DNA of 64,000 nt, taken from NCBI RefSeq assembly GCF_964204645.1, contig NC_134028.1, positions 22,852,153 through 22,916,152 of the forward strand, written 5' to 3'. Within the stretch, counting starts at the first letter, position 1. Each line of letters begins with the position of its first letter. This document shows positions 1,475 through 63,681 of this stretch, piece after piece. The position numbers and the translations under genes were made by a program. The notes below the pieces were generated by a model that saw only the letters and a list, made by a program, of their open reading frames with translations, was not told the DNA's origin and did no database searches. The stretch comes from Tubulanus polymorphus (lineage: Eukaryota; Nemertea; Palaeonemertea; Tubulaniformes; Tubulanidae).

Positions 1475-4400
1475 ATGGCGCCGGAGAAGAATTTACGATT
1501 CATGACCGTCGTGCAACTGCGAGAAGAATGCACGAATTACAACCTGCCGACGAACGGCACGAAGGCCGATCTTGTCAAACGCATCAAAGAACATCTGAAA
1601 AATGTCGCTACCGGTATGATAAGAATTATATTACAAAAATACTGTAGATTTTTTAAATAGTTTATCCAGTCGGCCCATAGGGGCCTGACACAGAAGGCAT
1701 TTGACCCCAGTGTCCTAGATACTTTATATAAAAAGTCTTTTTATTTTGCCTAGGATACTGGGGTCAAAAACATTTTGTGTCGGGCCCCTGTGTGTAGACC
1801 TAAAGCTAATTATCCCATCTGCAAGTATTCCTGGTTTTTTTCCCTAGAAATAGCAGCCCTGGCAGCCCAGGAAGCAGAGAAGTTGAAAGAAGAAGAGGAG
1901 TTAAAAGCGAAGGAGGCGGCTGCGGCAGCTGAGGCTGAAAGGATTAAACTGTTAGAGGAAGAGAAGGAGAAGAGTAGGAAAGCAGCGGCGCTGGAAGCGG
2001 AGCTCGTACGGAAAAGAGCCGAGGCGAAAAAAGCCGCAGCAGACGTGGAAAAGGTTAGAATACAAGTTCAACAGAGAAACGTTGAAGTAGAAGTTGAAGC
2101 TGACATCGAAATGATCAATTCCGAATCTATTAAGGAAGAGGTGTGTATTGTATTTGGGAAAGAGCAGATTTTCTGAAGGGTTTTAGATTGTCTGAAGGGT
2201 TATCCAGGACTGTAGATTGTCTGAAGGAGAAGCTTTAGATTGTCTGAAGGGGTTATTCAGGGCTGTCGATTGTCTGAAGGGTTATCCAGGACTGTAGATT
2301 GTCTGAAGGAGAAGCTTTAGATTGTCTGAAGGGGTAATTGAGGGCTTAAGGTTGTTAGGAGGCATTATTCAGGGCTTAAGATTGTCTGAAGGGGTAATTC
2401 AGGGCTGTAGATTGTCTGAAGAAGTTATTCAGGGCTGTAGATTGTCTGAAGAAGTTATTCAGGGCTGTAGATTGTCTGAAGGGGTAATTCAGGGCTATAG
2501 ATTGTCTGAAGGGGTTATTCAGGGCTGTTGATTTTCAGAAGGGGTAGGTAATTCAGGGCTGTTGATTGCTCAAAGGGGTAGGTAATTCAGGGTTTAGGGC
2601 TGTTGATTGTCTGAAGGGGTAATTGAGGGCCTAAGGTTGTTAGGAGGCGTAATTCAGGGCTGTTGATTGTCTGAAGGGGTAATTCAGGGCTGTTGATTGT
2701 CTGAAGGGGTAATTCAAGGCTTAAGGTTGTTAGGAGGCGTTATTCAGGGCTGTTGATTGTCTGAAGGGGTAATTCAGGGCTTAAGCTTGTTAGGAGGCGT
2801 AATTCAGGGCAGTAGATTCTGATTGGGCGTTTTAGATATGTCTCCGACTGCAAAATTTTGAATTGGGAAAACAATTATTCTCTATCCGATAGCAAGAAGA
2901 TGAAGATGAAGGCGATGATGATATGATTCTGATGGATGAATCTACGGGCAGTTTGACAGAGGATGCTGCTGGTGCTGCCGATGCTACCGAACAGAAAACC
3001 GATGACGTGAAAATGGAAGAAGAAACTTCCGAAGACGTCGATGATGAAAAACCAGAACCTGAATTCCCGTAAGTGTCGACCGAGAATTATATCAATTTCA
3101 TGCGTGTTTTAAGAGCGCCTGTGAAATTTCGGCCCGAAAAATTCCTCGAACAACGAATATTTATTATATTAATCTGAATATTTATTATCTTATTATATTC
3201 ATCTATATTTCGTAGCGAGTTGCCGGACAATGAAATCGAAGAATTCGTTTTGGATAAAAATCAATCGAAGCAACAGATCACGTGTAAACTGTGTTTGCAT
3301 ACGTTATCGATCACAGATGAGGAGGTAAAAAATAAATTAACCCTTTCAGTGCATCTACACCGCAGTGCGGTTTATGAATCGGTGATGGATTTTGCTAGTA
3401 CACCGCACTGCGGTGTATTAACGTAATTAGTAATTATCTCTCTTGAAAGATGGCAGCACCTGTCAAACATAGTGAAATATTAGTAACTAACGATATACCT
3501 TGCCGCGGTGTAGACGCACTATAGCGCTATTCCCGTTATTCAGCACACTAGGGTGGAATTTTTCAAATATTTCAAATTATCTCCAGCACTATAGGGTATT
3601 GATTAGTCAGCACTGAGAGGGTAAAGTAGTGTCAATATGCAGGCTGCACCAAGACACCCTTTCACTTATCTGCTAAATTTTGATTGTCCACTCTTCGCAT
3701 GCGTTCAGAAAAAATGAACTAGGCCTACCAGTCATCGGCGCACTTTCAAAAACTCATCCACACTAAAATGATGTTAGTCTGAAGGGTTTGGTCGAGGCTG
3801 CGGATAAATGAAATACCTGCATGAAAAATGACGCGAATGAGAAGCTCACTGTGCAGCAAATAATTGATGATATTTGTACTAATTAGCTATAAACGATTAA
3901 TTGAATGGTTTCTTTTGTCTGTACTGTAAACTGATGTAGATTATTTGTTTTCCCCTCTTCCTCCTTCTTTGTATTTGTTCGTGTATAGATGGGCTCTTCG
4001 ATATTATGTTTCAGGGTTTGACTGCGCATTTGGATTCAGAAGAGCACATAGCTCGATTAGAACAGTATAAAGATCGCGCCAGAGGTATTTACCAAAAAGA
4101 AATACCGTGGTACGCCGTATCGAAAAAATGAAAATCATATCTCATTCTCGCGTTTGTTTTCTGAATTTTTTAGGGCACCACTTAGTTGGCGCATACGTCA
4201 CATGTCAAGTAAGTTGAGAGCATGAAATGGTGAATTATAGTCTTGCTTAATTTTTTGTGAATAATGCATATCCAGAAAGTCCTCTTGATTTATGATTACG
4301 AAGTTCGCTCTCTGTCAGCCTTATCACATTACAAATCGATTGCGCACGTTTGATTATTTTTCCAGCTATGCGATCGTGAAATGGCGTACGATGAATGGGA

Positions 4401-7400
4401 TTATCATCAGGATACCGATCGTCACAATCTGGTAAATAATACCGCTGTTATCCATTTCTCAGTGTCCATGGCTGACAGAAATGTGTGCACATTTTTGTGA
4501 CTAACGCGCGGAGAATTTCAATAACCAAGGGTTACTGATAGTCTGAACGGCAAATGATTTTATGGGTTACCCCTGTGAATACCAGCCAGTTTTACGGGTT
4601 GTTACCCCTAGCATGATAACCGATGATTTTATGGATTACCCCTGTTAATACCAGCCAGTCTTACGGGTTGTTACCCCTAGTATGATAACCCCATGATTTT
4701 ATGGGTTACCCCTGTTAATACCAGCCAGTCTTACGGGTTGTTACCCCTAGTATGATAACCCGATGATTTTATGGGTTACCCCTGTTAATACCAGCCAGTC
4801 TTACGGGTTGTTACCCCTAGTATTATGATAACCCGATGATTTTATGGGTTGACCCTAGAACAATCTGAACAGCAGTAGAACTTACCGGTCACCCCTTGAT
4901 TAGTCTGAATACTGGATGATCTGAGGTCACCCCTAGAACAACGGGTACAATGGTTAGATACTAGGAAATGATGTGGAATTTCAACCCAATGTTTTTCGAC
5001 TGGAATTTTTTGACAAGTGGGTGGATAGTCGATAGAATCATGGGGTTCACAAATCTAAGTCATGTATTACCATTGGGAGTAGATTTTGCAATGTCCGCGA
5101 GCCGGTTGTTGGCTCGGTTGTTCGGCAGCAGTGTAGAGACATCGGAATCGATGTTTAATGCGTTTCGCATTGTTTTTATTTCTGTTTTGTAGAATAAGCT
5201 ATTGAAAGAAAATGGAGGTATGTAAGAGCCGAAGAAACGTGCAAACTGAACTAAAGCATATTTTACGCGGGAGCAAAAGCAACCTCGTTGGTGGTAGGGC
5301 AGTGACTGCCTCTGAATATTCATGAATATTATAGGGGGGCTGAAATAGTTTGCCGGATATTTTCTTCAGATTTCATATCTTGTTTTAACGTCAAACGAAA
5401 ATGAGCTGATTTACCAAATAATGTTTTCTTCGAATTTTTTCGTAATTTCAACGAAGTATTATAGTTTTCTCAAACTTGATACAAACGAAATTAAGCTATT
5501 TTTTTACGTTCAACTTTAAAGAAGCTCGAACGGTATTTCAAATTCAAAGATAATTTCATGTTGAGCTCGATGAGTTTTTATTCTCAACGGCATTTGAAAA
5601 CTGTATGGAATATATTTCAAAATCTTTTGCGGCTGACGCCGGGCAGGATCTTTGTTTCTGGTGCAAAGCTAAGTAATTGCATTTCTCATTCATGCTTTTC
5701 TCGAGGGGAATAATGGGTTGAAAATGGCCTGTGGAGTGAATGGATTCGAGTAGATCCTTCACTAAGAACCTTAGTGTCTGATGTTCGCGTACGAGTCTTG
5801 CGTTGTAGCGCATGCACAACCCAAGCTCCAGGACTCATTGAAGCCGATCGTAGATGATTCTTGAAAATAATTATTCCCTGCTTCGAAACGAAGGCTCTTG
5901 CTAGAAAAGTCGAGATGTTTAGATGTCTCCTCTATCTGTCTGTCTTGACTGTGAACATTGTATACATAATGAAAGCTTTAATTTCAGTTCTTCCGATTAA
6001 AGTACCGTACGCATTGATTCAGAAGAAAATTGATGAAATGAATTCGCTTGAAAGTCCTCTTATAGGTAAGAATTGGAACCAGTATTTTGCAGTCAGCACC
6101 CGGGTCCACATGAGTTACAGCTCTGTCTTCAGGATGCTTGGTAGCAGGCTGTTGGTTGATCCTGTCATGTTTGGCTGGGGTTTCTTTGCCAAACGGGGAT
6201 CCTTTGATGTCCTTCACCTTTCGTAAGATGCCTGGTTGCCTTAGATCCTCTTAATATCATAACGAAAACTCTTTCTTATCTTTTATTCTTGACGATATAT
6301 CTGATTACAAAATGTTGGGGCTTTCTAAAAGACGTCTTGCCCCTGCAAGAGCTCTGGCTCAACTCCCTTTGTCCCTCTAATCTCTGATGGGTCTCGTGAT
6401 ACAACCAACATCTGGTTTACAACCTAATTTCCTAAATTTAAATCCGTATTTATAAGTTCTGTGCCAAATCACTATATAACAATACCTGCATTAATAACTC
6501 GAGTAAAGATTGGAATATTTTCGTCCTTAAACCTGGGTCTAGACTTGAAAAGACATTTCCAGAATAACTTTGAGAACTCCATTTCATAATTGTGAAAATT
6601 GTAAATTGTGTAATCTCTGAAGCATTTCAATTTGGTGTTTTGTATTCAGGATTGTTCTGGATTCATGAAATCATCGAAGCAAAATCTTTTGACACGTTCA
6701 AAGTGAAGTATATTTGTTATTGTTGTAACTTGAAAGAGAAGGACGACGTGAACGGGGAACAAATCATAGAACACATCCAATCGAGAGAACACATCATCAA
6801 TGCAGTCGTAAGCATCGACAGATTTTTTCATTCGATTTTTTACTTCTTCATTTCACTTCATTTCTATGTTTATCTCAGGCATCAAATGGATGTATTAATT
6901 GCGGACGTCTGCTTAAGAGAATGTGAAAAATCATGAAAATATGTGAAAAAAAATTCACGAAAAACGTGTCGAAATATTTTAATGCTAGATACATCATCAA
7001 TGAATTTTCGTTTGGATTTATGTTTGCAGAAGAAGCATCACATGATGGCGTACGAGGCGTGTTTGACCACGACGCAGACGTTCAATCAAACGCGACCGGC
7101 GGCCGCGAAACCTCGCAAGGTCGACGACGAACTGATGCATTACATCAGGGATAACGGTCACGAGTTCTTCCGGCGACATCGACTCAAAACGAAAATCAAC
7201 CTCGACGACGAGTTTACGCTGGCGATGAAAGTAAAATACGGGGTAAGTGAATTTATCGGTCTCGTGAAATCCGAGGTGATTACTGTTATAAACTGTATAA
7301 ACAGTGTTCCCAAATCGCTCTATAAACCCTCAAATTCCAAAATTCATTTTTGAGTAAACCCTCAAATTCTGAGTGTTTGTCCTTGGTTCACCCCTTCAAA

Positions 7401-10400
7401 CATTCGAAGATATGTCGTTTGTATTTTTCCAGTAGTTCAGAAACAGTAGCTTAAAGTTCATGGTTGATCTTGAAATGCATAACTGGTGATTACGCCCTTT
7501 AAGCGCCCTCAAATTTGAAAATGGTCGTCCCTGTATAAGAATGTATTATTTTTCGTTTGATCTCCTAGAGCGCGCACGCGACGCATAGCATACAAAGAAA
7601 GTTCCCGAAAGTTGAACTGGAGCCGGATCAGAAAGCGAAAATACAAGATGAGATGGATCGATGCAAGAAGCCGATTGCGGGTAACCCTTCTAATCAATCA
7701 CATCCCGGGTCTAGTTTCAAGAAAAGGTTAACTTAGATTTTTGGTTTTATTGCTATTGGCAACTTCATGTTTTCAATGAGGACAACAATTAAAACTTTTT
7801 AACATTTTAAGCTTAAACTTTTTCATTAAACTGAACCCAGGATCAACTCCTGAATAGATTTAAGAAAACAAATCTAATTCATGCGCTTATAGATTAATTA
7901 AATTGATCCAAAATGATCTGAATAAAGCGGGTTACCGTTGAACTGTACAAAAATTCACATCACCAAATTTGACATTAAATCCATTTCTAATCAATTTTCC
8001 CTAAAAAAAGACCTTATCTCGCACCTGAATCTATCTCCGAGCTACGAAAGTGTTTTGCGTGTGTGTTTTAAGGATTGGATCTGATATCCGAAAGGCGCTA
8101 TCTAAACGGAGATCTCGAGTATTTCTGCATTCTGTGTCACAGAGAAGTCGAACGTAAAGACGTTCCGAATCATTTGACGCAGGTCCTACACAAGAAGAAA
8201 TTCCTGGTTAGTATAATCATCATCGGAGAACCTGGGGCTCGTCGTTCCAAAAGTTGTTTACAGTAAACCAGCGGATAGTTGACAAATGAAATTTCATTGG
8301 TTCATACTATGGTATTTCAGGGTCCGATCTAAGGAATGAAAGCCACTTGCCCGGGGGGCAAGCACATCTAAAATTTTGCTATGCTTGCTCCCTCCAAAAG
8401 CTACTTGCCCTACACAGGCAGTCCGATTGGTGGAACATTCATCCGTTGTATCGAGTGGGAAAAAAGTTTTGTGATATAAAATTGCACTAGCCCGGGGGAC
8501 AAGTGATAATGATAACCTACTTGCCCTGAAGAGAATATACTTGTCACGGGCAATCGGACAAGTGCTTAGATCAGACCCTGGGGCCGGTTGCATAGTCACA
8601 GCTTGGACTGAAGACCAGTCTAAGACCAACTTAGTTCTATAGCCAATCTAAGAACTTAAGACCAGTCTTAAGATTTAAGACCATTTTTGGACTTAAGCCA
8701 TGACTGTGCAACTGGCCCCTGGTATTTATCCGACGGTTTTCTTTAACCAACTTTTGAGCAACCGGCCCCTGGTCTGCTGGTTGACTCAGCATGTGCGTAT
8801 GTGATCGTTCGTTTTTTTTTTCTTCAAAATTCCAATTCAGCACCGCTTTCACGCGGATTTATTTGCGAAAGTGATGGAAGAAGGACGATGGATCGAGAAT
8901 ATCGGCCGAGCTGAGGCGAAAGCGAAACAAAAACGTGCCGAAAAACTGGCGATCGAACTGTGCGCGAAGCATCTCGACAAATTCCCGCGGCCGCAAGTTC
9001 AAGTTTGTCTGAAAGCCGGAAAATCGATGCCTGGTAAGTCAACGAAATAATCGAGTTCCATCCGCGTTACATCAGCTATTTGGCTGTATCGTCTGCTAAT
9101 TAATAGCGCAACAAGAATGAGGACTCGACATTTAACCCTTTCAGTGCTGACTAATTAATACCCTATAGTGCTGGAGATATTTTGAAATATTTGAAAAATT
9201 CCACCCTAGTGTGTTGAATAACAGGAATAGCACTATCGTGCATCTACACCGCTGCGCAGTGTATTGTTAGTTACTAGTATTTCACTATGTTTGACAGGTG
9301 CTGCCATCTTTCAAGAGAAATAATTACTAATTTCATGAATGCACCGCATTGTAGTCTCCTAGCAAAATCTATCACTGATTTATTCACCACACTGCGGTGT
9401 AGACGCAATGAAAGGATTAACTGACGATTGACGATTCGCCAGGGAGAAATCCGGGCCTCGCGATGTCTGAATGCTACTCAAGCTACGCCTAGTGGATCTT
9501 CACGACAGACGTTTCTTATCTTTTCACCGTAAACGTTTCATTATTGTGCATTATTTTCGTATTTCTTGTATTGATTGTAGAGTTCGATGAGTTGGTCAGG
9601 AATAGGAGAGACGACAAAAAAGACGCGAAAGTTACAAAACGCAGAGCGGGTGCTTCACCGGGCAGGTTGGACGGTGGGCCTCCATCTAAAAGGTATGCCT
9701 TTTATGGGTCTCATGGGTCCAGTTGCGCAGTCATGACTCAAGCGGTCTTAATGTACTGTGATATAATTGAATGTGTAATATTTAGTACAAATCATTGATG
9801 TTTATTTGAAATCTATTTCTGAATTACTATATTTTCAGGGGTGGTTATGGAGCAGGTAAGCTGTAGCTGTAACGCAGTGTCCCATTGCACATCGAGGTGA
9901 TGCATGAAATTCTAAAATTGTTCTGAGACGACTAATTTTATCTTTGTACACATTTCAGGGCAAAGTGGAAGAGGTCGCGGAAGAGGTGGAAGAGGTGGAA
10001 GTGGAATGGGTAGAGGTGGAATGGGAGGTTATAATAGAGGCAACATGAAAAGAGGTCAGATGAATGATTACGACTTCGGAAATGAAGACATGGGGGGAGG
10101 TTATGGAGGGAATCAGATGGGCGGCTATGGTGGTAACCGTAACCTGATGGGAGGTTATGGAGGCAACCGTAATCAGATGGGAGGTTATGGAGGCAACCGT
10201 AACCAGATGGGAGGGTATGGAGGTAACCAGATGGGAGGTTATGGGGGCAACCGTAACCAGATGGGCAATTATGGAGGCAACCGTAATCAGATGGGCAATT
10301 ATGGAGGCAACCAGATGGGAGGTTATGGAGGTAATCAGATGGAAGGTTATGGGGGTAAGCAGATGGGAGGTTATGGAGGTAACCAGATGGGAGGTAATGG

Positions 10401-11342
10401 AGGTAACCAGATGGGAGGTAATGGAGGTAACCAGATGGGAGGTTATGGAGGTGGCAGCCGAGGAGGTTTTAGAGGCAACAGAATGGGTGGAGGATTCAAG
10501 TAAGTATACTCACAATGTTTGATGTTTGTCTGGCTGTTCTGCGTTATTTGTCGCTTAAAACGATTAATCGTGTGAATATTATAATTCAAATAGTATTGCC
10601 TCTGGTGGCATGGAACAAGGCTACGACAATACTGAGGTACGTTCAGATTTTTACAAAAACAACCCCTCACAGTATGAGAGGAGGTGCAAATTCCTGTTGA
10701 TGATTTGATGTTTATTTGTTTGTAGGATACGTCCATGGATCAAATGGAAGAGGCGATGATTAAACGTATATCGAAGGCGTTGGCGCGAGAAATGCTCGAA
10801 TCACGACAGCAGCAACAACCGCAACAACAGGTAAAATGATCAATCGCTATCATGCAATATGTTACCAGTCTTGCCCCAATGCTGTCTGCTTACACCGAGG
10901 AGATAAACCAGGGTGGCAACTTACCTGGAAGTCAGGGAATTTTCTTTTCTTTGAAAAAGGCATTTTGTAACAAAGCTAGAAATTAGGGAGAAGTCAGGCA
11001 ATTTGTTGAGATTGCTAGATCAAATCAAACAGTTTCCATCTATGTCTTACGTATTTGATTATAAATTGATTGGATTCTTAGCAGATCAAGTCAGGGAAAA
11101 CAAGTAAAAATAAGTGGCCAATAAGTTTATAGTTTATTCATATTTTATAGGCTGGTGGAAGTGGAATGAATCGTAGTCGCGGTGGAAACATGAGTGCATG
11201 GGCCGGTGGAGCAGCTGGTCGAGGCAATAACGCGCGTGGAGCCGGGATGAATTCTAACAATCGTAGAGGCCGGGGTGGAGGTGTGTTCTGGTGAGGAAAA
11301 AACACAACTTTTCATCACCATCTAAACTTGGGAAACGGATAA
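1475..11342 (+). CDS. SAP-domain, four C2H2 (U1-like) zinc finger, RGG-tail nuclear protein, paralog 1 (20 exons, 936 aa)
   Basis: Exons: 1475-1613, 1848-2140, 2893-3068, 3216-3324, 4015-4084, 4174-4208, 4366-4431, 5193-5217, 5988-6065, 6650-6807, 7030-7242, 7569-7680, 8073-8206, 8841-9033, 9581-9692, 9839-9855, 9959-10499, 10594-10636, 10726-10830, 11151-11342. All junctions are GT-AG, and summed lengths give 936 codons plus a stop. Residues about 6-44 form a SAP DNA-binding motif (LRFMTVVQLREEC). Residues 48-145 are an Ala/Glu/Lys coiled coil, followed by an acidic stretch. Four fingers of form C-x2-C-x(11-15)-H-x5-H begin near residues 226, 272, 353 and 509, resembling the U1-C/matrin class that binds RNA or DNA. 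The tail (643-824) is GGYGGNQM repeats, then a helix near 840-862 and a final RG-rich exon. ATG 1475 aligns with the start of the paralog at 46081. The last exon reads to TAA about 11340; a further splice at CTG/GTGAGG (11288/11289) is possible. Function is inferred only. Confidence 0.85.
1679..1789. mobile_element. Short palindromic element (MITE-like), copy 2
   Basis: It is a terminal palindrome: GGGGCCTGACACAGAA at the left pairs with TTGTGTCGGGCCCC at the right, and inner arms share TTGACCCCAGTGTCCTAG and its complement around an A/T-rich loop. It lies in intron 1 of the SAP gene. Confidence 0.6.
2165..2820 (+). repeat. Minisatellite, about 30-bp unit, intron 2 of SAP paralog 1
   Basis: About 20 imperfect units contain AGATTGTCTGAAGGGGT followed by AATTCAGGGCTGT. 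Later units alternate with a variant TTAAGGTTGTTAGGAGGC. The core is the same as the 33-bp minisatellites at 53810-54090 and 56140-56620. Confidence 0.9.
3337..3625. mobile_element. piggyBac-like MITE, copy 1
   Basis: The element opens TTAA-CCCTTTCAGTGC and closes with the inverted end GCACTGAGAGGGTAA. TTAA target duplication plus CCC...GGG termini is the piggyBac signature. It has an internal palindrome CACCGCAGTGCGGTG and lies 12 bases after the donor of exon 4 of the SAP gene. It is too short (about 285 bp) to encode a transposase. Confidence 0.75.
4527..4960 (+). repeat. Tandem repeat, about 67-70 bp unit, intron 7 of SAP paralog 1
   Basis: Four to five units contain GATTTTATGGGTTACCCC, then ACCAGCCAGTCTTACGGG, then TTGTTACCCCTAGTATGAT. 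Units in the middle are nearly identical and the edges decay. Confidence 0.85.
8320..8580. mobile_element. Palindromic element with GGGTCCGATCTAAG ends, copy 1
   Basis: It begins AGGGTCCGATCTAAGGAATG and ends CTTAGATCAGACCCTG. The interior repeats CTTGCCC in both orientations (ACTTGCCC, GGGCAAG). It is very similar to 20798-21040. A second MITE starts directly at its right end. It lies in intron 13 of the SAP gene. Confidence 0.7.
8581..8720. mobile_element. Palindromic MITE, CCAGTTGCACAGTC family
   Basis: Starts GGGCCGGTTGCATAGTC and ends GACTGTGCAACTGGCCCC. The interior is runs of CTTAAGACCAGTCTTAAG-type half-palindromes. It is one of about six copies in this window and abuts the preceding element without a gap. 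Confidence 0.75.
9132..9420. mobile_element. piggyBac-like MITE, copy 2
   Basis: TTAA-CCCTTTCAGTGCTG at the left and AATGAAAGGATTAA at the right; reversed relative to copy 1. It lies in intron 14 of the SAP gene. Confidence 0.75.
10100..10460 (+). repeat. Coding minisatellite: GGYGGN(R)NQM repeats in exon 17 of SAP paralog 1
   Basis: In-frame tandem units of 24-33 bases (ATGGGAGGTTATGGAGG then AACCAG or AACCGTAACCAG) encode about 14 copies of M-G-G-Y-G-G-N plus Q or RNQ. The low-complexity tail has therefore grown by DNA-level unit duplication, and its length is likely polymorphic. Confidence 0.85.
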
Positions 11343-11506
11343 AGTCGTGTTTGGAAATTGAAAATCAATCCAATTCCAAGAACATTTCGTAATATCGTAA
11401 AAATCTCAGTGTTTTCAGTGTTTTTATCTCATGTTCAGAGAACGTTTATATATATATCTACCGGTGTACATGAATGTGTATCAATATGGAAATCATGTCT
11501 GTCTTC

Positions 11507-11512
11507 AATAAA
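11507..11512 (+). terminator. Candidate polyadenylation signal of SAP paralog 1
   Basis: AATAAA about 165 bases after the stop near 11342, followed by T/G-rich sequence. It is the first canonical signal on this strand after the coding end. Confidence 0.55.
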
Positions 11513-29307: not shown

Positions 29308-29899
29308 TTTCGGCTTTTAACGCTTTAGGTTGTCGTTTCTCGATGTCGTCCACGAGACGACAATTCAATTTAATTTTATTCGAAAATCCAAAATAACTTT
29401 ATTGCTCATAATTTTGAATAAGCGGGCGTTTCTGATCCGTTCGCCTCTATCAAAGAATCTTTGAAAACCGGTTTAAATGAAGTCATAAATGGATAAGGAG
29501 TTATCTCCATTAGAGGGGAGAAATCATCAAGGGAGACTGACTGATGATGGCTTAGCCAAACGTTGCAGATATTGGCATCAACAGTGGGGGCGCCGCCCCA
29601 CGCCCGGGTGCTTCGCCCAACCTTAGAAATATCCGAAGCGAAAGATAAATCAGGTATTCCGCACTAATTTATTGCTCTAAACTTTATATAAGGCTAAAAA
29701 TGATTCATTGTTTCTGCGCAGTGTCGTGTAAACCGCAATAGATTTGTAATCAGTGTGGCTGTGACTAGCCCGGGATATAGGATTTTTTAAAAAGTTGTAC
29801 AGGATAGATAGGCGACCGACCGGGTCAACTTTTAAGCTCATCAGACAAAGACAAGGAAGGTATTAGCTATTTTAGCCTAACATTAAAAAGACATTTCTC
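29308..29899. other. Spacer upstream of PSMC4, probable promoter
   Basis: Between the PSMC4 start codon and the end of the HYKK-like gene. No repeat or coding exon is evident. A GC-rich run (about 29584-29625, GGGGGCGCCGCCCCACGCC) stands out. The PSMC4 transcription start should lie here, but no TATA box is clear. Confidence 0.4.
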
Positions 29900-44770: not shown

Positions 44771-44879
44771 GGCATTCTTTCGGGCGCTACACGCACTTAG
44801 CGTCTACAGACGGCTCATAAGCCAAAAACAAAATACTCAAAAAACATATACGAATTCGTGATGGCGGTTTGATCAGTAA

Positions 44880-52000: not shown

Positions 52001-54850
52001 TTACAAAAATGCTGTGGCAAGTGAGGTGAATCACTTCCAGAACCAGTCCGCATTCACACGTGTGCTAAAATTTGATACAGGCCTGGTCCGACATTTTAGT
52101 TGGAACAAATATGGCCTGCGTCAAACAGATTTGGACCCATCAAGTATCAGTATGTGAACTGATGAAATTTTGGCTGGGTCCAAAACCGAAGCTAGAAAAC
52201 GGTATCCTCAATTGCCGCAGTCGACTGCGGAGTACTCATTGTAAAGTATTTCATCGTCATCGGTGTTGCAGCAAAAGTGCCAGCCGGAAATCTACAAACA
52301 AATCGAAAAAGAAGATCAATACATACCGAACGCTACGAAGAAACAACTGAGAGAGCGCGAAAAAACGGTGACGGCTTTATCGAAGAAACTAGCGATCGCA
52401 TTTATAGAAAAATACCCGCGTTCTTTGGTTAAAGTGACGTTGAAGGCAGGAAAATCATTACCAGGTATAGATTATGAAATAAATGTGGCTGTGTCCGTTA
52501 TTACTGTCTCAATCCATTAGCAGATTCCACAAGAAAAACCGCGAATCTATTTTCAACACACTTGATGTCACGATATTAATGAACGCATACAGCTCCTCTA
52601 TAATCCCAGCAGATACTGATATTGCGTTATTTGCTTTAGATTGTTATTTTACTGATTCGATGTTTCACGTATTGTAGCTTGGAAACCACCTTCGAAAAGA
52701 CCCGATAAAAGAAATCAACGGTCGGCCGGTAATTGGTACGTCGTATCTTCTGCTTTTCCGTTGATCGTCTTTTTGAAGTTGATTCGTTACTCCTTGAGAA
52801 AATGAAATTACTTATTTCAGGGTCGATGACGATAGCAGGAGGATGTATCAACAACACCACAACTATTCCTATAACAGAAGATGTAAGTACGTTTTCATTT
52901 CAATCAAAATACGTGAGTCGTTTTAGCTTGATTTACAGTAGACTGTGTTTGATGTGTTGATATCAATGCTCTGTCATAGCTTGTGAGAAATTACACCAAA
53001 ATGAAGATTAGTTTTCAATATTTCGTAATCTTTAGTGAAGATTTGGTGTCCATGTTACACTTAGGAATGAATCAATTCCCTCGGGGTGGTCACCATCTTG
53101 GAAAACCTGGAAAACTCTGTGAATTGTAAAACTCGAGGGAAAATCCTGGAAAACTCCTGGGAATCTGGATAATGTTGTTGACCACGTGTATTTTTATCAG
53201 TGATTCGATGTAAAATGAATGAATTGTAACGTTCTAAACCTAAAAATTTCTTTGATTCGCTCGTGGAATTTTGTAATCACTCGGAAAAATCATGGAAAAC
53301 TCAAGGGAATTTGTAAATGGGCGGAAAGTGGCCAATCTGTTCCTTTAAAATCCCAGGATATGGAGAACATTGTGTAAGAGAGGAATTTATTTCTAAAACT
53401 TTCATGTTTGATTTATTCAGCAGCTGGTCCCGGTATGGATTATTGCGGTGGTTATGACTATAATTCGGCCGGATACTCGTATCAAAGTCCGTACGACGAA
53501 TACTACCACGGCACCGGTGGATACTGCGGATACCCGGGCGGATATCAACAACCGGGAAGTTATCCGCGACGCAATCAACAACAGCAACAACAACGCGTTA
53601 GATCGACGTACCCCGGAGGACGAGGTTTCCTAGCCGATGAATACGAGAGGCAGTACGCTGGCTGCGGAGCTCAGGGTAACGACTACAGACTTCAACAACA
53701 TCAACAACAGCAGTCACCTTACCACCACGCAAATCAGGTATTATCATTTTCAAGTCCCAGTTCCACAGTTGAAGGTTTCATTTTACTCTTGCTTATGTAA
53801 CTGCCATTCTGCTGTCAGTACCCTGTACCCTCTCAGACAATCTGCTGTCTGTACCCTGCGCCCCCTCAGACAATCTGCTGTCTGTACCCTACACTACCTC
53901 AGACAATCTGCTGTCTGTACCCTCCCAGACAATCTGCTGTCTGTACCCTGCACCCTGTCCCTCTCAGACAATCTGCTGTCTGTGTCTTGCATCCCCTCAG
54001 ACAATCTGCTGTCTGTATCTTGCATCCCCTCAGACAATCTGCTGTCTGTATCCTGCATCCCCTCAGACAATCTGCTGCTTGAATATTGACTCTCAACCAC
54101 AGTGTTGATTGACTCTTTCAGGCATCGGGCTCATATAATGAAGAGTTGAATATGATGGAAGTAGCAATGATACATAAACTCTCAAAAGTGATAACTAAAC
54201 AAGTTCTAGATGTGAGAAGAGGTCACCAGGTTAGTAGTAGACATATTGATGCATTTTTTATGCCATATACTGCAGAGCTCAGAATTAATACACAACCTGT
54301 GTGTTCAAGTTTAGATATCTTATTTGAATCCGTCCAAACTGTGATCAGTAAGCGCTTATGCGATAGCAACATGTATGGACAATCTCGATAAATTTGGTGA
54401 AAAACTCAATTGTATGGTTCGTCAATCGAATTTGTGCAATATGTTTTATTTTGAAATCTTCATGACATCCTCTCAGTCAATGTCGACAGGTGACACGACA
54501 CTCTTTGAATCCGACGGGTCGATCGATATTAATCCCAGTTATTTCTGAGTTAATGAACTAAACTCACAGTCGACGGTTTAAAAGTCTATTCTTACAGTTT
54601 GGAAGTTTTGAAGAAAAACTATTTTATTTTCTCGGATGGTGAAGTTTAGTCAAAACTTCCAAACTGTCGGTTAAATCTTCTTTGTCACGGTACCATTTCA
54701 ATCGAGTTTCTTATAGATGTTTATAAATTGATATTTGTGCAGGATGATTACAGCAGCAGCAGCGGCGGGGGCGGTGGATACAACGGCGGCAATAGAGGAG
54801 GAGGAGGAGGTGGAGGAGGTTATAACGGTCGTAGAGGAAGGAACTATTAA
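46081..54850 (+). CDS. SAP-domain, four C2H2 (U1-like) zinc finger, RGG-tail nuclear protein, paralog 2 (19 exons, 682 aa)
   Basis: Exons: 46081-46228, 46692-46752, 47185-47293, 47472-47547, 47632-47666, 47752-47817, 48435-48459, 48553-48630, 49453-49610, 50534-50746, 51189-51222, 51333-51392, 51763-51902, 52272-52464, 52678-52735, 52821-52882, 53421-53737, 54122-54229, 54743-54850. All are GT-AG, and the frame closes at TAA. The SAP motif is at about 12-50 (LGFMTITQLKEECAKYKLPS), then an acidic linker. Fingers C-x2-C-x(11-15)-H-x5-H start near residues 93, 142, 222 and 373; finger 1 spans exons 3/4 and finger 2 exons 5/6. After finger 4 comes a basic helical stretch ending VTLKAGKSLPG, then a Tyr/Gln-rich prion-like exon, the conserved helix (MEVAMIHKLSKVITKQVL) and a Gly-rich end. 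It lacks the long Ala/Glu coiled coil of paralog 1. Probable nuclear RNA/DNA-binding protein; function inferred from domains. Confidence 0.88.
46235..46590 (+). repeat. ~93-bp tandem repeat, intron 1 of SAP paralog 2
   Basis: Three and a half units start GTGCAGGTATCAGTCTGCTG and continue GGGTAACCCCTCAACC, then CCCTGCACCCCTTTCAGCC. The words CCTGCACCC and ATCTGCTG link it loosely to the 33-bp minisatellites. Confidence 0.8.
47083..47147. mobile_element. Short remnant of the CCAGTTGCACAGTC MITE family
   Basis: GGGCCAGATGCACAGTCATG at the left pairs with CATGACTGCGCAACCCTTGGCC at the right. The interior is mostly deleted. Confidence 0.5.
48910..49194. mobile_element. piggyBac-like MITE, copy 6
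   Basis: TTAA-CCCTTTCAGTGCTTGC at the left; CGCACTGAAAGGG at the right with the final TTAA mutated to TGAA. It lies in intron 8 of SAP paralog 2. Confidence 0.75.
49700..49915 (+). mobile_element. (TAA)n-linked short interspersed repeat
   Basis: A TAATAATAATGATAATGATAA microsatellite runs into TTATATAGCGCCGG and CACCAGCGCTTTGTATGG. The TATATAGCGC motif beside a TAA microsatellite is a widespread invertebrate repeat. A related unit is at 59755-60010. Confidence 0.55.
50215..50460 (+). repeat. Tandem duplication rich in GTACACTT / AAGTGCAC palindromes
   Basis: A ~105-base unit occurs twice, containing AAGTGCACTTTCCCTATGA, AAAGTGCACTAATTT and AGACTCAATGAGTACACT, then tails off into AAGTGCACTTCAAGTGCA. 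It lies in intron 9 of SAP paralog 2. Confidence 0.75.
50829..51009. mobile_element. Pogo/Tigger-like MITE, copy 2
   Basis: Left end CAGTAGAACTCGCTTCATTC; the right end read in reverse is CAGAATAACTCGTTTAATTC. Interior GGTCCGAATTCAACGAAATC has inverted partners. Same family as 20474-20642. Confidence 0.6.
53810..54090 (+). repeat. 33-bp minisatellite, intron 17 of SAP paralog 2
   Basis: Eight or nine units of CTGTCTGTACCCTGC followed by GCCCCCTCAGACAATCTG. Some units are shortened. Apart from about two bases, this is the reverse complement of the unit at 56140-56620. Confidence 0.9.
54540..54690. mobile_element. Fold-back element
   Basis: TTACAGTTTGGAAGTTTTGA and TCAAAACTTCCAAACTGT are inverted around an AT-rich loop. 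Similar GAAACTGT/AACTTC half-elements occur at 16840-16915 and 21741-21865. Confidence 0.55.
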
Positions 54851-56139: not shown

Positions 56140-56620
56140 GGTCAAGCAGATTGTCTGAGGGGGTGCGTGGTACAGACAGCAGATTGTCTGAGGCAGTACA
56201 GAATATAGACAGCAGATTGTCTGAAGGGGTACAGAATATAGACAGCAGATTGTCTGAGGGGGTGCGTGGTACAGACAGCAGATTGTCTGAGGCAGTACGG
56301 AATATAGACAGCAGATTGTCTGAAGGGGTACAGAATATAGACAGCAGATTGTCTGAGGGGGTGCGTGGTACAGACAGCAGATTGTCTGAGGCAGTACAGA
56401 ATATAGACAGCAGATTGTCTGAAGGGGTACAGAATATAGACAGCAGATTGTCTGAGGGGGTGCGTGGTACAGACAGCAGATTGTCTGAGGCAGTACAGAA
56501 TATAGACAGCAGATTGTCTGAAGGGGTACAGAATATAGACAGCAGATTGTCTGAGGGGGTGCAGAATATAGACAGCAGATTATCTGAGGGGGTGCAGAAT
56601 ATAGACAGCAGTCTAACTGC
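56140..56620 (+). repeat. 33-bp minisatellite downstream of SAP paralog 2
   Basis: About 14 units of CAGATTGTCTGAGGGGGTGC with GTGGTACAGACAG (33 bases), in higher-order sets of three variants (GTGCGTGGTACAGA, GCAGTACAGAATATAGA, GGGGTACAGAATATAGA). The open frames here on both strands (189 and 179 codons) are by-products of the 33-bp period. Confidence 0.95.
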
Positions 56621-57937
56621 TGTAATAATGTAATGCTCTGGTGTATTGAGAGTCTATTGTTCATCCCTATCTGTAGTTAATAATAATGTTTAATATAATA
56701 CGTAGTGCTTGAAGTCACTCTTTTTCTCTCTAAGAGATTTAAACGGATGTTTGTGTATCTTAGCATTATTCGGGCTAATGATATTCTATTCTCGCGGAGA
56801 CGTTCGGGTTCCCGATGATCGATTGAAGTTTTAGGGTCGTTGTGTTATCGGACCATGTCAGTCCAGTGTGGCGTAGATTGTTTACACCCGCGATGGTTTC
56901 TTTTTCATTTGTATAGCTTTTTACAGCGGTTCATCATTCAATATTAACATGTCAAACATTTCCGTTTAATAAAAAATTTTGAAAATTCCACAATTACTTC
57001 GTTCATTGGTATTATTTTAAATTAATTAATGGAATCTTGTTTCCTCTGTTTCCTCCAATTGCCTCGGAAAATCGCACGGCCTCTGCCGAAGAATCATTGC
57101 TCTCACCACTCGGGAATTCCCTTGCCAAGGAACCGATTGCCATAGATTATTGCATCACAGAGCTGCCAACTGTTCCTGATCTGCAGTATTTGTTACAAGA
57201 TATACTGATTTGATGCATACAGAAAAATGAAAGATGTTACTGAGGGTCTTGCTTTTGATTACTGATTAATTCAAACATTTTCTTTCATATTTCAATGAAA
57301 TGTCACTAAATTCATTTTGTTGCCGATAGCACTTTTCAGACGTTGGCAGCCCTCGCATCATTTGAAACTTAATCTGCTTCAAAGGGAAATCTCGATTATA
57401 ACTTACGTTAGAAATCCAACTGATCAGAATTAAACGAGTCGACTCTAACCCCAAGATCATCAAAGCAGAGGTTTTCCAAACCACAAAATACGACGAAATA
57501 TTACAAGCTTATAAGCAATCTTTTTACATCGTGACATCATTTTAATATTACGACTTAACGATGAATACACAGGATTAACCGGTAAACACATAGCGGCATG
57601 AAGAGTATTTACAAATATCATTCAGGGAAGAGTTATGAGACGAAATTATAAACGTTTAAAACCAACACAATGAATTAATCAGTTCATCCATTCATTTACG
57701 TATAAATTATTCCATTGAGATGTACAACGACCGCACTTCACTTTAGTACAGTATCGAATGTTTTTATGTTTGCCGAGAAGCCATCGCTCTCTAAAACCCA
57801 CCGAAATTCATGTTCATGCTCTGAAATGACAATAGAACATGCTGGAATATGCTGTGGTACTATAAGGCAAGTTTCAACCGGATGTATTCCAGTTTTAGAA
57901 TAACAATTCCGCAATAAGGTCGATAGAAATCCCGATT

Positions 57938-58006
57938 CCCAAATACTGGACTCAATTGTAGGGCCATAACTGTCAACTGGCCCTAGAATTGAGTCCAGTA
58001 TTTGAG
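57938..58006. repeat. 27-bp-arm palindrome
   Basis: CAAATACTGGACTCAATTGT and CAATTGAGTCCAGTATTTG-like arms (with AGGGCCA/TGGCCCT) surround TAACTGTCAAC. It lies just beyond the donor of the last identified exon of paralog 3. Confidence 0.75.
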
Positions 58007-58061
58007 AATCATTAGAGGCCAATCCAATACCTGTAAAGTAGAAGTCGTATTTTTACCGTAC

Positions 58062-59759
58062 CTTGCCGGATTTTTTGGCAGCCAACATTTCTTTACACAA
58101 AGCTTTCGATATCCGTTCGACCATCGCAGCCTCCATGCTGTCCAAGTCTTCATCTCCTCCCATACCACCGCCCTAAATCAAAGCACGGATAGAAAATCAA
58201 ATAAAATTATTCGAATGCATCGAAAAAATCCTCTACATGATGATCTACCAGGTTTCTTATTACAAGATGCCCCACTAGATCGTAGAAACTTTTAGGACCT
58301 CAAATCTCTAAATGTGATAAATTACACCAAACTTCAGGAAAGTCCTAAAAGACTTATAGGTATTTCAGTCATTGATGACATCAAGATTTGAGGCTCAAAT
58401 CATTAGATGTATCAAATTTTGTATTTTTGTCCCCTTTAAGTCCCCAAATTCTGGATTAACCAAATACTACGATTGCCTCAGGTCTCAAGGGGCAGTCATC
58501 GCCAGTATCGGTCATTATTACAATAATTGGAATACCGGTAAGAAAATATTTTTGAATATATCATCTCAAATGAGGCAATTGACTGGGGGAGTCGAGGGCA
58601 CACGATAATCTGAGGAATTCAACTCTGGGACAAGGGGAAGGCAAGGGCATGCAATTATATGAGGAAGTCGACTCCAGCGTAAACAGTCTATAACGAACCG
58701 TGTCAATAAACGACGACACTTACCTGATTCTCGTAACCTTCGTTGCTGAATCCACTCATATTTCCAAATCCTCTCCTATTTCCTCCACCCCTTCCATATC
58801 CTTGATTACCTCCGAAGCCTTGATTACCTCCGAAGCCTTGATTACCACCGAAGCCTTGATTACCACCGAAGCCTTGATTACCACCGAAGCCTTGATTACC
58901 ACCGAAGCCTTGTTCATCTCCATATCCTTGATAATTATCTCCGAATCCTTGCTGCTCGTTGAACCCGAACCCTTGACCTCTACTGCCGGAGTTATTACCG
59001 AAACCCTGACCGCGGCCGGTTTTCTTCGTGCCGTCGTTGCCGCGAATGTTTCCATATCCGGGTCGTTTATATTTGAAACCCATCGCGACGTGGTCGTTGA
59101 GGAAACCTTTCGATCGTTTCGGCTGAGCGCCTTCGTTCTTCATTCTATCACGATTAAAAAACAACATCAGAATCATTTATTCATCGTGTACACATGAATG
59201 GGGGTAGAGACAAGTTTGAGGTGTTTGCCTCTAGAGTAAAAACATTGGAAATGAACTAATTTAACCCTTTCAGTGCTGACTAATTAACGCATTAATGCCC
59301 GAAAGTGCATGGTCCAGTTTCACAAATTTAAGCCTAAAACGGTTAAGTTTGAATTGTTGTCTTCATCGAATACATGAAGTAACCAACGGCAATTACACCA
59401 AAGATTTGGGTTTAACTTTTTTGTGAAACAGGGCCCAGGAGATAGTTTTGAAATTCTTTTTTTTTAAATTCCAGAGTGTGTTGAATAACGGGAATACCAC
59501 TACAGTGCGTCTACACCGTGGCGCGACGTATCGTTAGTTACTGATATTTCACCATGTTTGACAATGCAGCCATCTTTTAATAGAGATTAAAACTAATTAC
59601 TAGCAACATCAATACACTGTGATGTGGTGTACTAGTGAAGTCCATCAATGATTATACACCGCACTGTGGTGTAGACGCACTGAAAGGAGTTAACACGTTC
59701 GCCGCCGACTGTGAGGAATCATTCATTTCCCGTTTTAACTAGACTCAATCTCAATTTCA

Positions 59760-59796
<37 letters not shown>

Positions 59797-62700
59797 ATTT
59801 ATAGTGCCTGTATCCACAAAAAATGTGATCAAAGACACTTTTGTACCAGTTATGAAAACAGATGCGTTTTCAGACGGCGCCTGAAAATCGGTAAGCTGTC
59901 AGATGCTCTAATAGAAATGGGGAGCTTATTCCACATACGTGGAACAGCACATGAAAAAGAGCGATCTTCAAACAAGCTCAGCCTGCTTCTAGGTTGGGAC
60001 AAAAGGAATTCTCCAGAAGATGTTATACATACTCGGAGAAAAGAGACTGAGTATCCGTGGATCCAGATCCGTTTCCGAAACCGCGTTTACCGAATCCACC
60101 TCCGCGGTTACCGTTTCCACTTCCTCGGTTACCGTTTCCGCTGCCTTGTTTCTGACGGAAACGTTCGTACATATTTCGGCCGCGTGAATCGTACGCGCTG
60201 GCGCCGTCATCCTCCCAACTCTCCTCGTTTTGGTTCCAGTTACCGGCGCCCCCGCCGAAATTACCGTAATCGCTGCCACCGCCGTAATCATCGTAACTAC
60301 CGTAATCATCGCCGTAATCGAAACCGCCGCCCTGGTATCCCCCGCCTCCGTAACGACCTTGACCTCCTCCTCCTCTGTTGAAACCGCCTTGAAATTCACC
60401 CCCATAACCTCTGCGGTTATTCCCGTGGAAGTTTCCTCCTGCGCCGCCACCGCCGTAACCTCCCTGGTTACCTCCGTAGTTACCTCGTCTACGACCTCCT
60501 CCTCGCCTGCAATAAACATAAAGCCAGTACAACGTTACAATGATATACATATTTGTCTAGGTCTAATGTCTAATGATTGTATATATAACAGAGAGCTGCT
60601 GGTAACGTGTCTTAATTAGGGAATATATCTGTACGTACCCTCTGTTACCCCTGTTGCTGTAATTATCACCGTCGTCCTCAAACTTTCGTTTACGATTCAA
60701 TCTCGGATTTTCATCGTCTGAATAAAAAATATCATCGAATATCATTTGAAGTGGTCGAAACTATGCCGAATGCAGAAGAAACTGACAACATTCTAACAGT
60801 GACTAGTCGTTTAAAAAAAGATTTTCAACAAAGATTGCAGAAGAAGGGTGGGCAAGCAATTCACATCTCGATGCTGCATCAAGTTTGAATCCAATTTGGA
60901 AATATTTCCTAACGCAGGAAAAATCATTTTGTGGTACCCAAGTTTTTCCCAATTTCCTAGTACTCTAGGAACCCTTGATGGACAAAATAGTTTTTTTCTA
61001 ATTCGCTGTCTTCAATGCTAGTATCGAACCCCGATGCGCATAGGCTGAAACTAACCAGGAATCGGAGCTCCGGCTTTCAGAACGACTTTCACAGTCGGAC
61101 GCGGGTACTTATCGAGATACGGTTGACACAGTTCTAAACATCGTTTTCTCACTTTAACGTTGCGTTCGGCGATCTCTTCTTTCGATATATTCGGAACCCA
61201 CGCTCCGACTCGCAGAACCTCCATGAACACGTCTTTCTCGTTGCGTTTCTGAAAACAAAACAGAAATTATTCAGATATTCATCAGAAATTGGTGCTAATA
61301 TCTGAGTGACGAGTAGTTAGGACTGATTCAACTATTCGACTGTATTTCCTATTCTGCTGGACTTTCAGTTTGGTGATATAATTTCCAGGGCCAGTTGCAC
61401 AGTTGTGACTCGAGACTAAAAGTGGTCTCAGATTACTAGTTAAATTGATGACTAGGCCCCAGCACCAGTTGCACAGTCATGGCTTATACCTAAGACAACT
61501 CTGAGACCATCTTAGCTATATCGCTTATCAAACAACTTAATACCAGTCTGACCAGATGTCTGACCACTTTTTGAATTTACTTCAGTCATAACTGTGGAAC
61601 TGGGCCCTGGTCAGACCAAAGAGCGAAATGAATAATATATCTCGTTCCAATGCCTATATAATAAGTTTTAATTGACAAGTTTCGTCGATGGGATCCAGCT
61701 CTATTCAACTTACCAGGTAGCATTTCTTGTGGAAATAATTGTACAAGTGTTGAATAGCCTTTTCTTGGGAGGCGAGTTCCTCGCGACAGATCACGCAAAA
61801 ATATTCCAACTCTCCGCCGGGGTATTGACGCTCGATCAGAAAATCCGACCCTGAAATCACACGTAACAACATAAGTTTGTATCGCATCAAATATATTAAC
61901 TTCTTGGCCCAATTTTAGTGAAAAGTGAAATTTAACTGTATACATAGAATTGAGCTCATTTCAATTGAATATCTTAACTTCTGATCCAATTCCACAGTTC
62001 TAGGTTACTGGTAAGTTTGACCCAAAATTGTGTTAATTTCCAGCTTTTTAGAGTAAAGTTAGAGCCTAGAACTCAACGCAGTGAGGAAGTACTGAACCAA
62101 GGGAAGTTTGACCCAAAAAGGTTTAGTTCTGAATACTGGTACTTTCAGAGTTCATACACTCACCGAGTATATCCCTCTTGCAGTTTTCCAGTTTATCTTG
62201 AATTTGAGCTTTGACATCCAATTCCAACTCGAATTTCATCATCGCATCCGGAACTGTGGTTCCTCGATTGTTTTCTTCTTTCTGCAATAAAACATAAGAA
62301 CAATCGTCAGGAGGCAAAACAATTGAGCGCTAGTAATGACTAGGCTAGGTTTATTACTTTTAGCTGGGCTAGGTTTATTACTTTCGGCTAGACTTGGCTT
62401 ATTACTTTTGGCTAGACTGGGTTTATCACTTTCGACTAGACTGGGTTTATTCAACTCTAACAACCCAGAATTCAGTTCCAACATTTCTCACTCGATAATT
62501 CTGATATTGGTTCAGTTCGAATGTTTTAACTCTCATATTCGAGTCAATCTTAGCGAGAACCGAGGAACTGAATCGAGGCTCCACAGCCCCCTGTTTCATG
62601 ATCCGATAAAACCTAACTTACCGAATATTTCGCCTCCATTTTCGATTCGTACTCCTCGCCGAGGAAGAATCGCGTTTTGATTTTGTGACGTTTGAAGAAC

Positions 62701-63681
62701 TGTGGCGCGTTGTCGCGTACGTATTGACGGGCCTCGTCCTGAGCTAGACGCGGCCTCGATCCGGCCGGTCGCGTCTCGTTAAACATCGTCACGCTCTGAC
62801 ACACAGCATCGCACGCTTCCTGATTCAGCTTTTTCTGCGAAATTAAATTCAGAAATTTGAGGGCGAAATGTGATTTTGAAATAAAGAATAAAACCACATG
62901 GTCCAAAGTTATAGGGTTGAGGCAAAAGTAAAATCCCTTTTTAAGCACTTTTGTTTGGCAAAAGTGACACTTTTCTTATCATCAGTGTTTTCAATAAGAG
63001 CCAGGTCCCAGGTCCGTCTGTCGTTTGTAAAAGACCCGCCTGTTTTTTCAAACCAGCTTTCATTTCCGGGACTATTATGGGACCCTCCTCATTTCCGGGA
63101 CTATTATGGGACCCTCCTGTTTTTCGAAGGGACCTGGCTTGTTAATTTCTTATTGAAAACACTGATCATCATCCAAATCCACAACAGAAATTGTCAATTT
63201 ATGATCAGTGGTCTATAAACATGGGAAAAATGGATTAGAAATGGAGGACAGCAATATGTTGATACAGGCAGTTATATTGTCATCACATATATAGTGTCCA
63301 AGAAAGTAATTTGGGATACCAAATGTTAATAGTACCGGTATTGGTAAGCTCTTTGTAAACACTCGTTCAAATTTTGTGAAAAACATTTTCTAAGGGCCAA
63401 CATAATTTTCAAACAATTTGGAGACTTGCTATGAACCCCGAACTATCGTATTTTAAAGATTATCCTCTCGGTCGTGAGAAACCCTTACGAGAAAATCCCG
63501 GTACGACGAAACCCACAACTCACCAGCGCGTAGAAACAGTGTTTGTTCGTTTTCAAATGTTTGACCATCTCGTCACCAGAAATGGCGTTCTTCTTCGTGA
63601 TGTGACACGCCGTGCAACAATACGAGATTCGAAAGTCGTCGAAACTTTCGCAATTCACGCATTCGTGGACCAAATTCAATC
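58062..63681 (-). CDS. SAP/zinc finger/RGG nuclear protein family, paralog 3 (partial, nine exons)
   Basis: Exons in transcription order: 63681-63524, 62834-62622, 62281-62164, 61850-61714, 61248-61056, 60717-60639, 60506-60033, 59144-58724, 58172-58062; all GT-AG, phases consistent. The first three correspond to exons 10-12 of paralog 1, and the SAP part must lie right of the window. Finger 3 is CTACHITKKNAISGDEMVKH with a second His six residues later; finger 4 is CVICREELASQEKAIQH plus His. The link region ends VVLKAGAPIPG. The tail has two large low-complexity exons: 60506-60033 (GGY/GGN, with an acidic NWNQNEESWEDDGASAYDS insert) and 59144-58724 (about seven GFGGNQ repeats). The final visible exon carries the family helix MEAAMVERISKALCKEML. 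The donor at 58062 implies one more exon that I could not place securely. Without splicing, the frame would stop within three codons. Confidence 0.85.
58775..58920 (-). repeat. Coding 18-bp repeat (GFGGNQ) in paralog 3
   Basis: Tandem plus-strand units CCGAAGCCTTGATTACCA or CCGAAGCCTTGATTACCT encode G-F-G-G-N-Q on the minus strand, seven or so times. Unit and residue pattern differ from the GGYGGN repeats of paralog 1, so the expansions are independent. Confidence 0.85.
59261..59693. mobile_element. piggyBac-like MITE, copy 7, with a nested insertion
   Basis: TTAA-CCCTTTCAGTGCTG at the left; CGCACTGAAAGGAGTTAA at the right. At about 59297-59447 it is interrupted by a ~150-base foreign element with inverted ends (GGTCCAGTTTCACAAATTTA and TTTTTGTGAAACAGGGCCC). 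It lies in an intron of paralog 3. Confidence 0.75.
59755..60010 (+). mobile_element. (TTA)n-linked short interspersed repeat
   Basis: A TTATTATTATTATTATTATT run is followed by ATTTATAGTGCCTGTATCC, then GCGTTTTCAGACGGCGCCTG and GGAGCTTATTCCACATACGT. These words resemble a common invertebrate repeat that follows TTA microsatellites. It ends about 20 bases from the donor of the 60506-60033 exon. Confidence 0.55.
61389..61610. mobile_element. MITE of the CCAGTTGCACAGTC family (compound)
   Basis: GGGCCAGTTGCACAGTTGTG begins a short first unit; CACCAGTTGCACAGTCATGG begins a second at about 61464; the whole ends CATAACTGTGGAACTGGGCC. Two copies appear fused or nested. Confidence 0.65.
62338..62462 (-). 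repeat. Short tandem repeat, ~27-30-bp unit, intron of paralog 3
   Basis: Five units of GGTTTATTACTTTTAGCTGG-type sequence with GCTAGAC variants. Confidence 0.75.
62985..63163. mobile_element. Palindromic element with GTTTTCAATAAGAGCC ends
   Basis: GTTTTCAATAAGAGCCAGGT pairs with GGGACCTGGCT...CTTATTGAAAAC. The interior contains a direct repeat TTTCCGGGACTATTATGGGA twice in tandem (about 63062-63118). It lies in an intron of paralog 3. Confidence 0.65.

What the first reader, a model, noticed from the sequence alone, without database searches (positions are those of the whole stretch)
1475..63681. Local expansion of an unnamed SAP + four U1-like zinc finger + RGG gene family
Three clear members (1475-11342, 46081-54850, 58062-63681) and a likely fourth tail (378-497) lie in 64 kb. 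The two complete members share the order SAP, two split fingers, a short linker, fingers 3 and 4, a KAGxxxPG element, and an RGG/prion-like tail. Eight exons have identical lengths in both (109, 35, 66, 25, 78, 158, 213 and 193 nt), three of them (158, 213, 193) also in the third, while protein identity is only moderate. That is duplication of an intron-rich ancestor followed by fast protein divergence under splice-structure constraint. I do not recognise this domain combination as a named family. SAP suggests DNA/matrix attachment, U1/matrin fingers suggest RNA binding, and the tails suggest condensate formation.
Basis: partly seen in the sequence, partly recalled or inferred. Interest (0 to 1): 0.75.

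Follow-up and report, generated by a model that had tools for sequence, protein, structure and literature searches.

The report
Clustered SAP and zinc-finger RNA-binding-type genes
This stretch of an animal genome holds most of a cluster of four related, intron-rich genes whose proteins look built to hold DNA at one end and RNA at the other; the duplicated family is real and I found no name for it, but its parts are all of familiar kinds.

Summary
The cluster has four genes, not three plus a tail. The tail at 378-497 is the last exon of G0, which starts about 9.4 kb upstream of the window; the third member's SAP domain and first fingers lie past the right edge. All four share the eight exon lengths (109, 35, 66, 25, 78, 158, 213, 193 nt), a SAP domain above Pfam's cut-off, and four CX2C-Xn-HX5H fingers with invariant zinc ligands. 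Further relatives lie on the same chromosome at 6.3, 9.07 and 24.9 Mb. Fingers 3 and 4 are copies of one ~65-residue module; finger 4's predicted fold best matches SF3A2/PRP11 and TUT1/TUT4 U1-type fingers. No curated family beyond SAP claims the proteins.

"Fast divergence under splice constraint" is not supported: synonymous sites are saturated and dN is far below dS, so these are old duplicates under purifying selection, with one ~91-bp conversion-like tract between G0 and G1. "KAGxxxPG" is KAGxxxP (the G comes from reading into a donor), and RGG content is uneven. Most likely: nuclear chromatin-RNA adaptors of the matrin/U1-finger kind. No animal proteomes or transcripts could be searched, so lineage and expression stay open.

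The parts
378..497 (+). Last coding exon of G0 (GGSGSGRGG...GNYY*), the upstream cluster member whose other exons lie outside the window
   Evidence: Continuous with G0 exons in L006/L007
1475..11294 (+). G1, 20 coding exons, 920 aa: SAP, charged region, four CX2C-Xn-HX5H fingers, G/R/N-rich tail with conserved C-terminal motif
   Evidence: All introns GT-AG, no stop; SAP E=7.8e-13
1475..1613 (+). G1 SAP exon
   Evidence: Pfam PF02037, 48.1 bits against cut-off 23.9
3216..4431 (+). G1 fingers 1 and 2, each split over two exons (109+70 nt; 35+66 nt)
   Evidence: Zinc ligands invariant in five paralogs; exon lengths
4350..4440 (+). Conversion-like tract with G0 around the 66-nt finger-2 exon (exon 97%, tract 94.5% over 91 bp, other exons 53-76%)
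5193..5217 (+). G1 25-nt microexon (NKLLKENG), same length in G0, G1, G2, G3 and G5
5988..6807 (+). G1 linker exon (78 nt) and finger-3 exon (158 nt): repeat unit A
   Evidence: hhalign unit A against unit B: 97%, E 1.2e-10
7030..7242 (+). G1 213-nt exon between fingers 3 and 4, predicted all-helical at low confidence
7569..8206 (+). G1 linker exon (112 nt) and finger-4 exon (134 nt): repeat unit B
8841..9033 (+). G1 193-nt exon ending in KAGKSMP
9581..10636 (+). G1 G/R/N/Q-rich tail with GGYGGNQM repeats
10726..10830 (+). G1 exon with conserved C-terminal motif MEEAMIKRISKALAREML
   Evidence: Matching motif in G0, G2, G3 and G6
46081..54850 (+). G2, 19 coding exons, 682 aa, same order; tail Y/Q-rich with little RGG
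54122..54229 (+). G2 C-terminal motif exon (MEVAMIHKLSKVITKQVL)
57791..63681 (-). G3, part in the window (finger 3 to stop; some 3' junctions uncertain); SAP and fingers 1-2 continue past 64000 in L008
58062..58172 (-). G3 C-terminal motif exon (MEAAMVERISKALCKEML)
   Evidence: sequence

Best explanation
The window holds most of a four-gene cluster (G0, G1, G2, G3) from an older family of nuclear proteins of the matrin/U1-type zinc-finger kind, with relatives elsewhere on the same chromosome. Most likely mechanism: the N-terminal SAP domain contacts DNA or chromatin; fingers 3 and 4, duplicated 'linker helix + beta-hairpin + CX2CXnHX5H' modules with basic ends, bind structured or double-stranded RNA; the acidic region and near-neutral fingers 1-2 serve protein contacts; and the low-complexity tail adds loose, multivalent RNA contacts, with a conserved C-terminal motif that may pair the proteins. 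Together they would tether or chaperone RNAs on chromatin, much as SAF-A/hnRNP U is thought to do. Shown: gene structure, homology, domain assignment, repeat structure, predicted finger fold, purifying selection. Inferred: every binding activity, nuclear location, cellular role.
For: SAP above Pfam cut-off in all four. Four fingers with U1C-type spacing in five genes, and net charge +3 to +6 around the last zinc ligand of finger 4 in all five. Predicted finger-4 fold (pLDDT 78) matches SF3A2/PRP11 fingers (Z 5.9, rmsd 1.4 over 40 of 44) and TUT1/TUT4/TUT7. [quoted passage not shown] Units with fingers 3 and 4 are homologous. [quoted passage not shown] dN well below dS.
Against: No binding, localisation or expression data. 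Foldseek E-values are weak (best 0.17), and Z under 8 on a 44-residue model may reflect only a common arrangement. SAP and C2H2 modules also occur in DNA-binding or protein-binding roles. The tails differ between copies. No nuclear localisation signal was tested. Amphipathicity of the C-terminal motif is not above shuffles in four of five.
Confidence: 0.6

Rival explanations
1. The family is the local form of a described animal protein family (for example a matrin-type or 'protein on ecdysone puffs'-like hnRNP component) that the libraries here do not model, so the cluster is an ordinary multi-copy ortholog set.
For: Related finger modules occur in other genes of the genome (C10, C1), so the module is old. 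Pfam has no model for it, so absence there does not show novelty.
Against: No full-length named relative by Pfam, NCBIfam or PDB sequence; the AKAP95 model gives no hit on the five cores; no paper found with this combination.
Confidence: 0.35
2. The proteins are sequence-specific DNA-binding regulators: the C2H2 fingers read DNA and the SAP domain adds AT-rich DNA contact.
For: SAP domains bind DNA; Kaiso C2H2 fingers also appear among weaker fold matches (Z about 2.8).
Against: HX5H U1-type spacing and long inter-finger linkers do not fit tandem DNA-reading arrays; the best fold matches are RNP or RNA-enzyme fingers.
Confidence: 0.12
3. The fingers mainly bind proteins, with RNA touched only by the low-complexity tail.
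For: Fingers 1 and 2 are near neutral or acidic around the last ligands in most copies; C2H2 fingers can bind proteins.
Against: Finger 4 is basic in all five genes and resembles RNA-contacting fingers.
Confidence: 0.2
4. Some copies are decaying pseudogenes.
For: Old duplicates with many introns and intronic repeats.
Against: All core exons open, all zinc ligands kept, dN well below dS where measurable. G3's stop-containing 3' join is most likely a junction error in my model, not a broken core.
Confidence: 0.04

Closest known systems
SF3A2 / PRP11 U1-type zinc finger (U2 snRNP)
   Same: Predicted hairpin plus CX2C...HX5H finger aligns over 40 of 44 residues, rmsd 1.4, Z 5.9
   Different: Single finger in a spliceosome subunit; no SAP, no four-finger order; about 15-22% identity
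TUT4/TUT7 and JAZ (ZNF346) RNA-binding fingers
   Same: U1C-type CX2CXnHX5H spacing and fold; weak profile hits to ZNF346 and TUT4
   Different: Enzymes, or finger-only proteins; no SAP; sequence similarity not significant
SAF-A / hnRNP U
   Same: N-terminal SAP, then acidic region and C-terminal RGG-type tail: same overall logic of a DNA end and an RNA end
   Different: No SPRY domain found in G1 or G2; zinc fingers instead
SAFB and matrin-3
   Same: Nuclear-matrix-type proteins with SAP (SAFB) or U1-type fingers (matrin-3)
   Different: No RRM in G1 or G2
AKAP95 / AKAP8L / ZNF326
   Same: Two C2H2 fingers with R/G-rich regions (own knowledge)
   Different: PF04988 gives no hit on any of the five cores; SAP and fingers 3-4 extra

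Membership tests
SAP-domain proteins (Pfam PF02037) | SAP motif above Pfam's gathering score | tested here: met
   48.1, 40, 47.7 and 31.3 bits for G1, G2, G0, G3 against 23.9
U1/matrin-type C2H2 zinc fingers | CX2C-Xn-HX5H spacing | tested here: met
   Four fingers in each of five genes, Xn 11-15, HX5H throughout
U1/matrin-type C2H2 zinc fingers | Hairpin-plus-kinked-helix fold | tested here: inconclusive
   Predicted model matches SF3A2/TUT fingers at Z 4-5.9, but the model is 44 residues from three sequences
U1/matrin-type C2H2 zinc fingers | Match to a curated U1/matrin-type finger model | tested here: not met
   Only sub-cut-off hits such as zf-C2H2_2 and zf-C2H2_jaz
U1/matrin-type C2H2 zinc fingers | Binding of structured RNA | not testable with these tools
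   Needs protein and RNA
SAF-A / hnRNP U | SPRY and kinase-like domain | tested here: not met
   No such Pfam hit in whole G1 or in G2 up to KAG
SAFB / matrin-3 | RRM domain | tested here: not met
   No RRM hit in whole G1 or in G2 up to KAG
AKAP95 family (PF04988) | AKAP95 Pfam domain | tested here: not met
   No hit at E up to 5 in any of five cores; the six-frame genome search with this model rang nowhere and is uninformative
Drosophila protein on ecdysone puffs (Pep) | Sequence orthology | not tested
   No animal proteome to search; named from memory only

The most novel reading that the evidence does not exclude
A so far unnamed, lineage-restricted animal family of chromatin-RNA adaptors in which a SAP domain is joined to duplicated U1-type finger modules, expanded to a four-gene cluster plus dispersed copies on one chromosome, with tails evolving separately, so that paralogs tether different RNAs or form different nuclear bodies.
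Probability: 0.3. Interest if true: 0.55.

Novelty: new variant of a known kind. Interest (0 to 1): 0.38.

Why it matters
If confirmed, it adds a domain architecture (SAP plus duplicated U1-type fingers plus variable low-complexity tail) to the proteins thought to link RNA to chromatin, in copies with a conserved core and diverged tails: a natural comparison for asking what the tails do. The repeat unit (linker helix with IQ, PxxG turn, GLxxIxE hairpin, finger) has no Pfam model and could seed one.

Tried and rejected
Search of IMG/VR with the 213-nt exon: no relative. PDB sequence search of the core: chance hits only. AKAP95 and COX1 family searches of the genome: no match; the first rang in no control, the second was meant to place the phylum by mitochondrial code, so the species stays unknown. 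The 213-nt exon model is low confidence (pLDDT 61) and was not searched. Amphipathic-helix test of the C-terminal motif: not significant in four of five. Literature searches for the combination: nothing relevant.

Full report
Check of the observation. I rebuilt the genes from the raw sequence. G1 (1475-11294, +) has 20 coding exons with all introns GT-AG and no internal stop, giving 920 aa. G2 (46081-54850, +) has 19 exons and 682 aa. G3 runs on the minus strand; its exons from finger 3 (63681) to 60029 join in frame, but exon 59144-58724 as first joined gives stops. By eye an acceptor a few bases downstream (...GGCGCTCAG|CCGAAACGA) restores the frame, so this is most likely a junction error of mine; G3's 3' end is therefore uncertain. 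G3's 5' exons lie beyond the window's right end in L008, and with them G3 also has a SAP exon and exons of 109, 70, 35, 66, 25 and 78 nt. The 'tail' at 378-497 is the last exon of a fourth gene, G0, whose SAP exon starts at L006:6628 and whose other exons lie in L006/L007.

Corrections. The 'KAGxxxPG' element is KAGxxxP: the last G of the 193-nt exon is the first base of a codon completed in the next exon, and the residue is E in G1, A in G2 and D in G3. Coding of G1 ends at 11294. The tails are uneven: G1 has 7 RGG and is G/N-rich, G3 has 3 in the part counted, G2 has 1 and is Y/Q-rich.

Homology. Core identity is 57% for G0/G1 and 39-44% for the other cluster pairs. All 16 zinc ligands are invariant among five genes and all fingers have CX2C-Xn-HX5H spacing. 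Searching the genome exon by exon finds a divergent member, G5, at C4:9.06 Mb, which as I modelled it keeps the 70-, 66-, 25- and 78-nt exons and has 38, 152 and 198 nt in place of 35, 158 and 213; G6 at C4:24.89 Mb with three finger units; and G7 at C4:6.33 Mb. A SAP domain was not sought in G5-G7. All lie on the window's chromosome. More distant single finger modules lie on C10 and C1. A small tree puts G0 with G1 and G3 with the long-branched G5 (95% bootstrap), which, if right, means the cluster is not a recent burst.

Tempo. In the core, dN is 0.32-0.59 while dS is 2.4 or more or cannot be computed. The duplications are old and the proteins are under purifying selection; there is no sign of unusually fast change. 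Kept exon lengths are what old paralogs with stable introns show. One exception is a 91-bp tract, 94.5% identical between G0 and G1 around the 66-nt finger-2 exon (exon 97%) where other exons are 53-76% identical: a recent gene-conversion-like event is the simplest reading.

Architecture. Fingers 3 and 4 are each preceded by a linker helix with IQ and a PxxG turn, then a GLxxIxE hairpin. Profiles of the two units match each other (hhalign probability 97%, E 1.2e-10, one comparison; best shuffled control 11.0 bits against 32.7 for the best real unit, though two real units scored below that control). The finger exons start at phase-1 introns, which allows duplication of a unit without frame loss; G6 carries three finger units. 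The finger-4 exon product folds with moderate confidence (pLDDT 78), and its best structural matches are the U1-type fingers of SF3A2 and PRP11 (chains identified) and of TUT1, TUT4 and TUT7. Foldseek's own E-values are weak (best 0.17), so this supports the finger type, not a specific relation. The TUT4 paper describes this finger class as U1C type and homologous to dsRNA-binding fingers (PMC6488673). The 213-nt exon product is predicted helical at low confidence.

What it likely does. SAP contact with DNA or chromatin, RNA contact through fingers 3-4 (finger 4 basic in all five genes) and the tail, and protein contacts through the acidic region and fingers 1-2, would make these proteins chromatin-RNA adaptors, in the manner of SAF-A, which has a SAP domain that binds DNA and RNA and interacts with nascent transcripts (PMC12176297). 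The binding steps are inferred, not shown.

Known or new. Pfam finds only SAP above its cut-off; NCBIfam and PDB sequences give nothing convincing; no paper with this combination was found. It is not SAF-A (no SPRY), SAFB or matrin-3 (no RRM), and the AKAP95 model does not match. But no animal proteome could be searched, Pfam has no model of this module, and the host species is not known, so 'unnamed' here means unnamed in these libraries. I rate it a new variant of a known kind, of moderate interest.

Noticed in passing
3337-3625, 9132-9420, 21457-21747, 48910-49197, 59261-59692: Dispersed elements of about 290-430 bp with inverted ends TTAACCCTTTCAGTGC...GCACTGAAAGGGTTAA (14 end matches, 0.4 expected), piggyBac-MITE-like, several inside introns of G1, G2 and G3.
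   Followed up: partly
2185-2770, 53827-54073, 56148-56593: Related minisatellites sharing AGATTGTCTGARGGGGT sit in an intron of G1, an intron of G2 and between G2 and G3 (25 matches, 0 expected).
   Followed up: partly
28042-29316 (-): A 425-aa open frame without introns that looks like proteasome ATPase PSMC4/Rpt3 (AAA and proteasomal ATPase OB domains), among intron-rich genes: a possible retrocopy.
   Followed up: partly
about 14000-23000 (-): Exons of a vitamin K-dependent gamma-carboxylase-like gene (VKGC lumenal and HTTM domains).
   Followed up: partly
about 29900-32400 (-): Exons of a small-molecule kinase with an APH-type domain, perhaps hydroxylysine-kinase-like (the name is from memory).
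   Followed up: no
5193-5217 and the 25-nt exons of G0, G2, G3, G5: A 25-nt microexon (NKLLxENG) kept at the same length in all five genes; its length is not a multiple of three, so skipping would shift the frame.
   Followed up: partly
L006:2990-5230: A large array of 'tcccgtgagaggacccg' units, in both orientations, lies upstream of G0.
   Followed up: no
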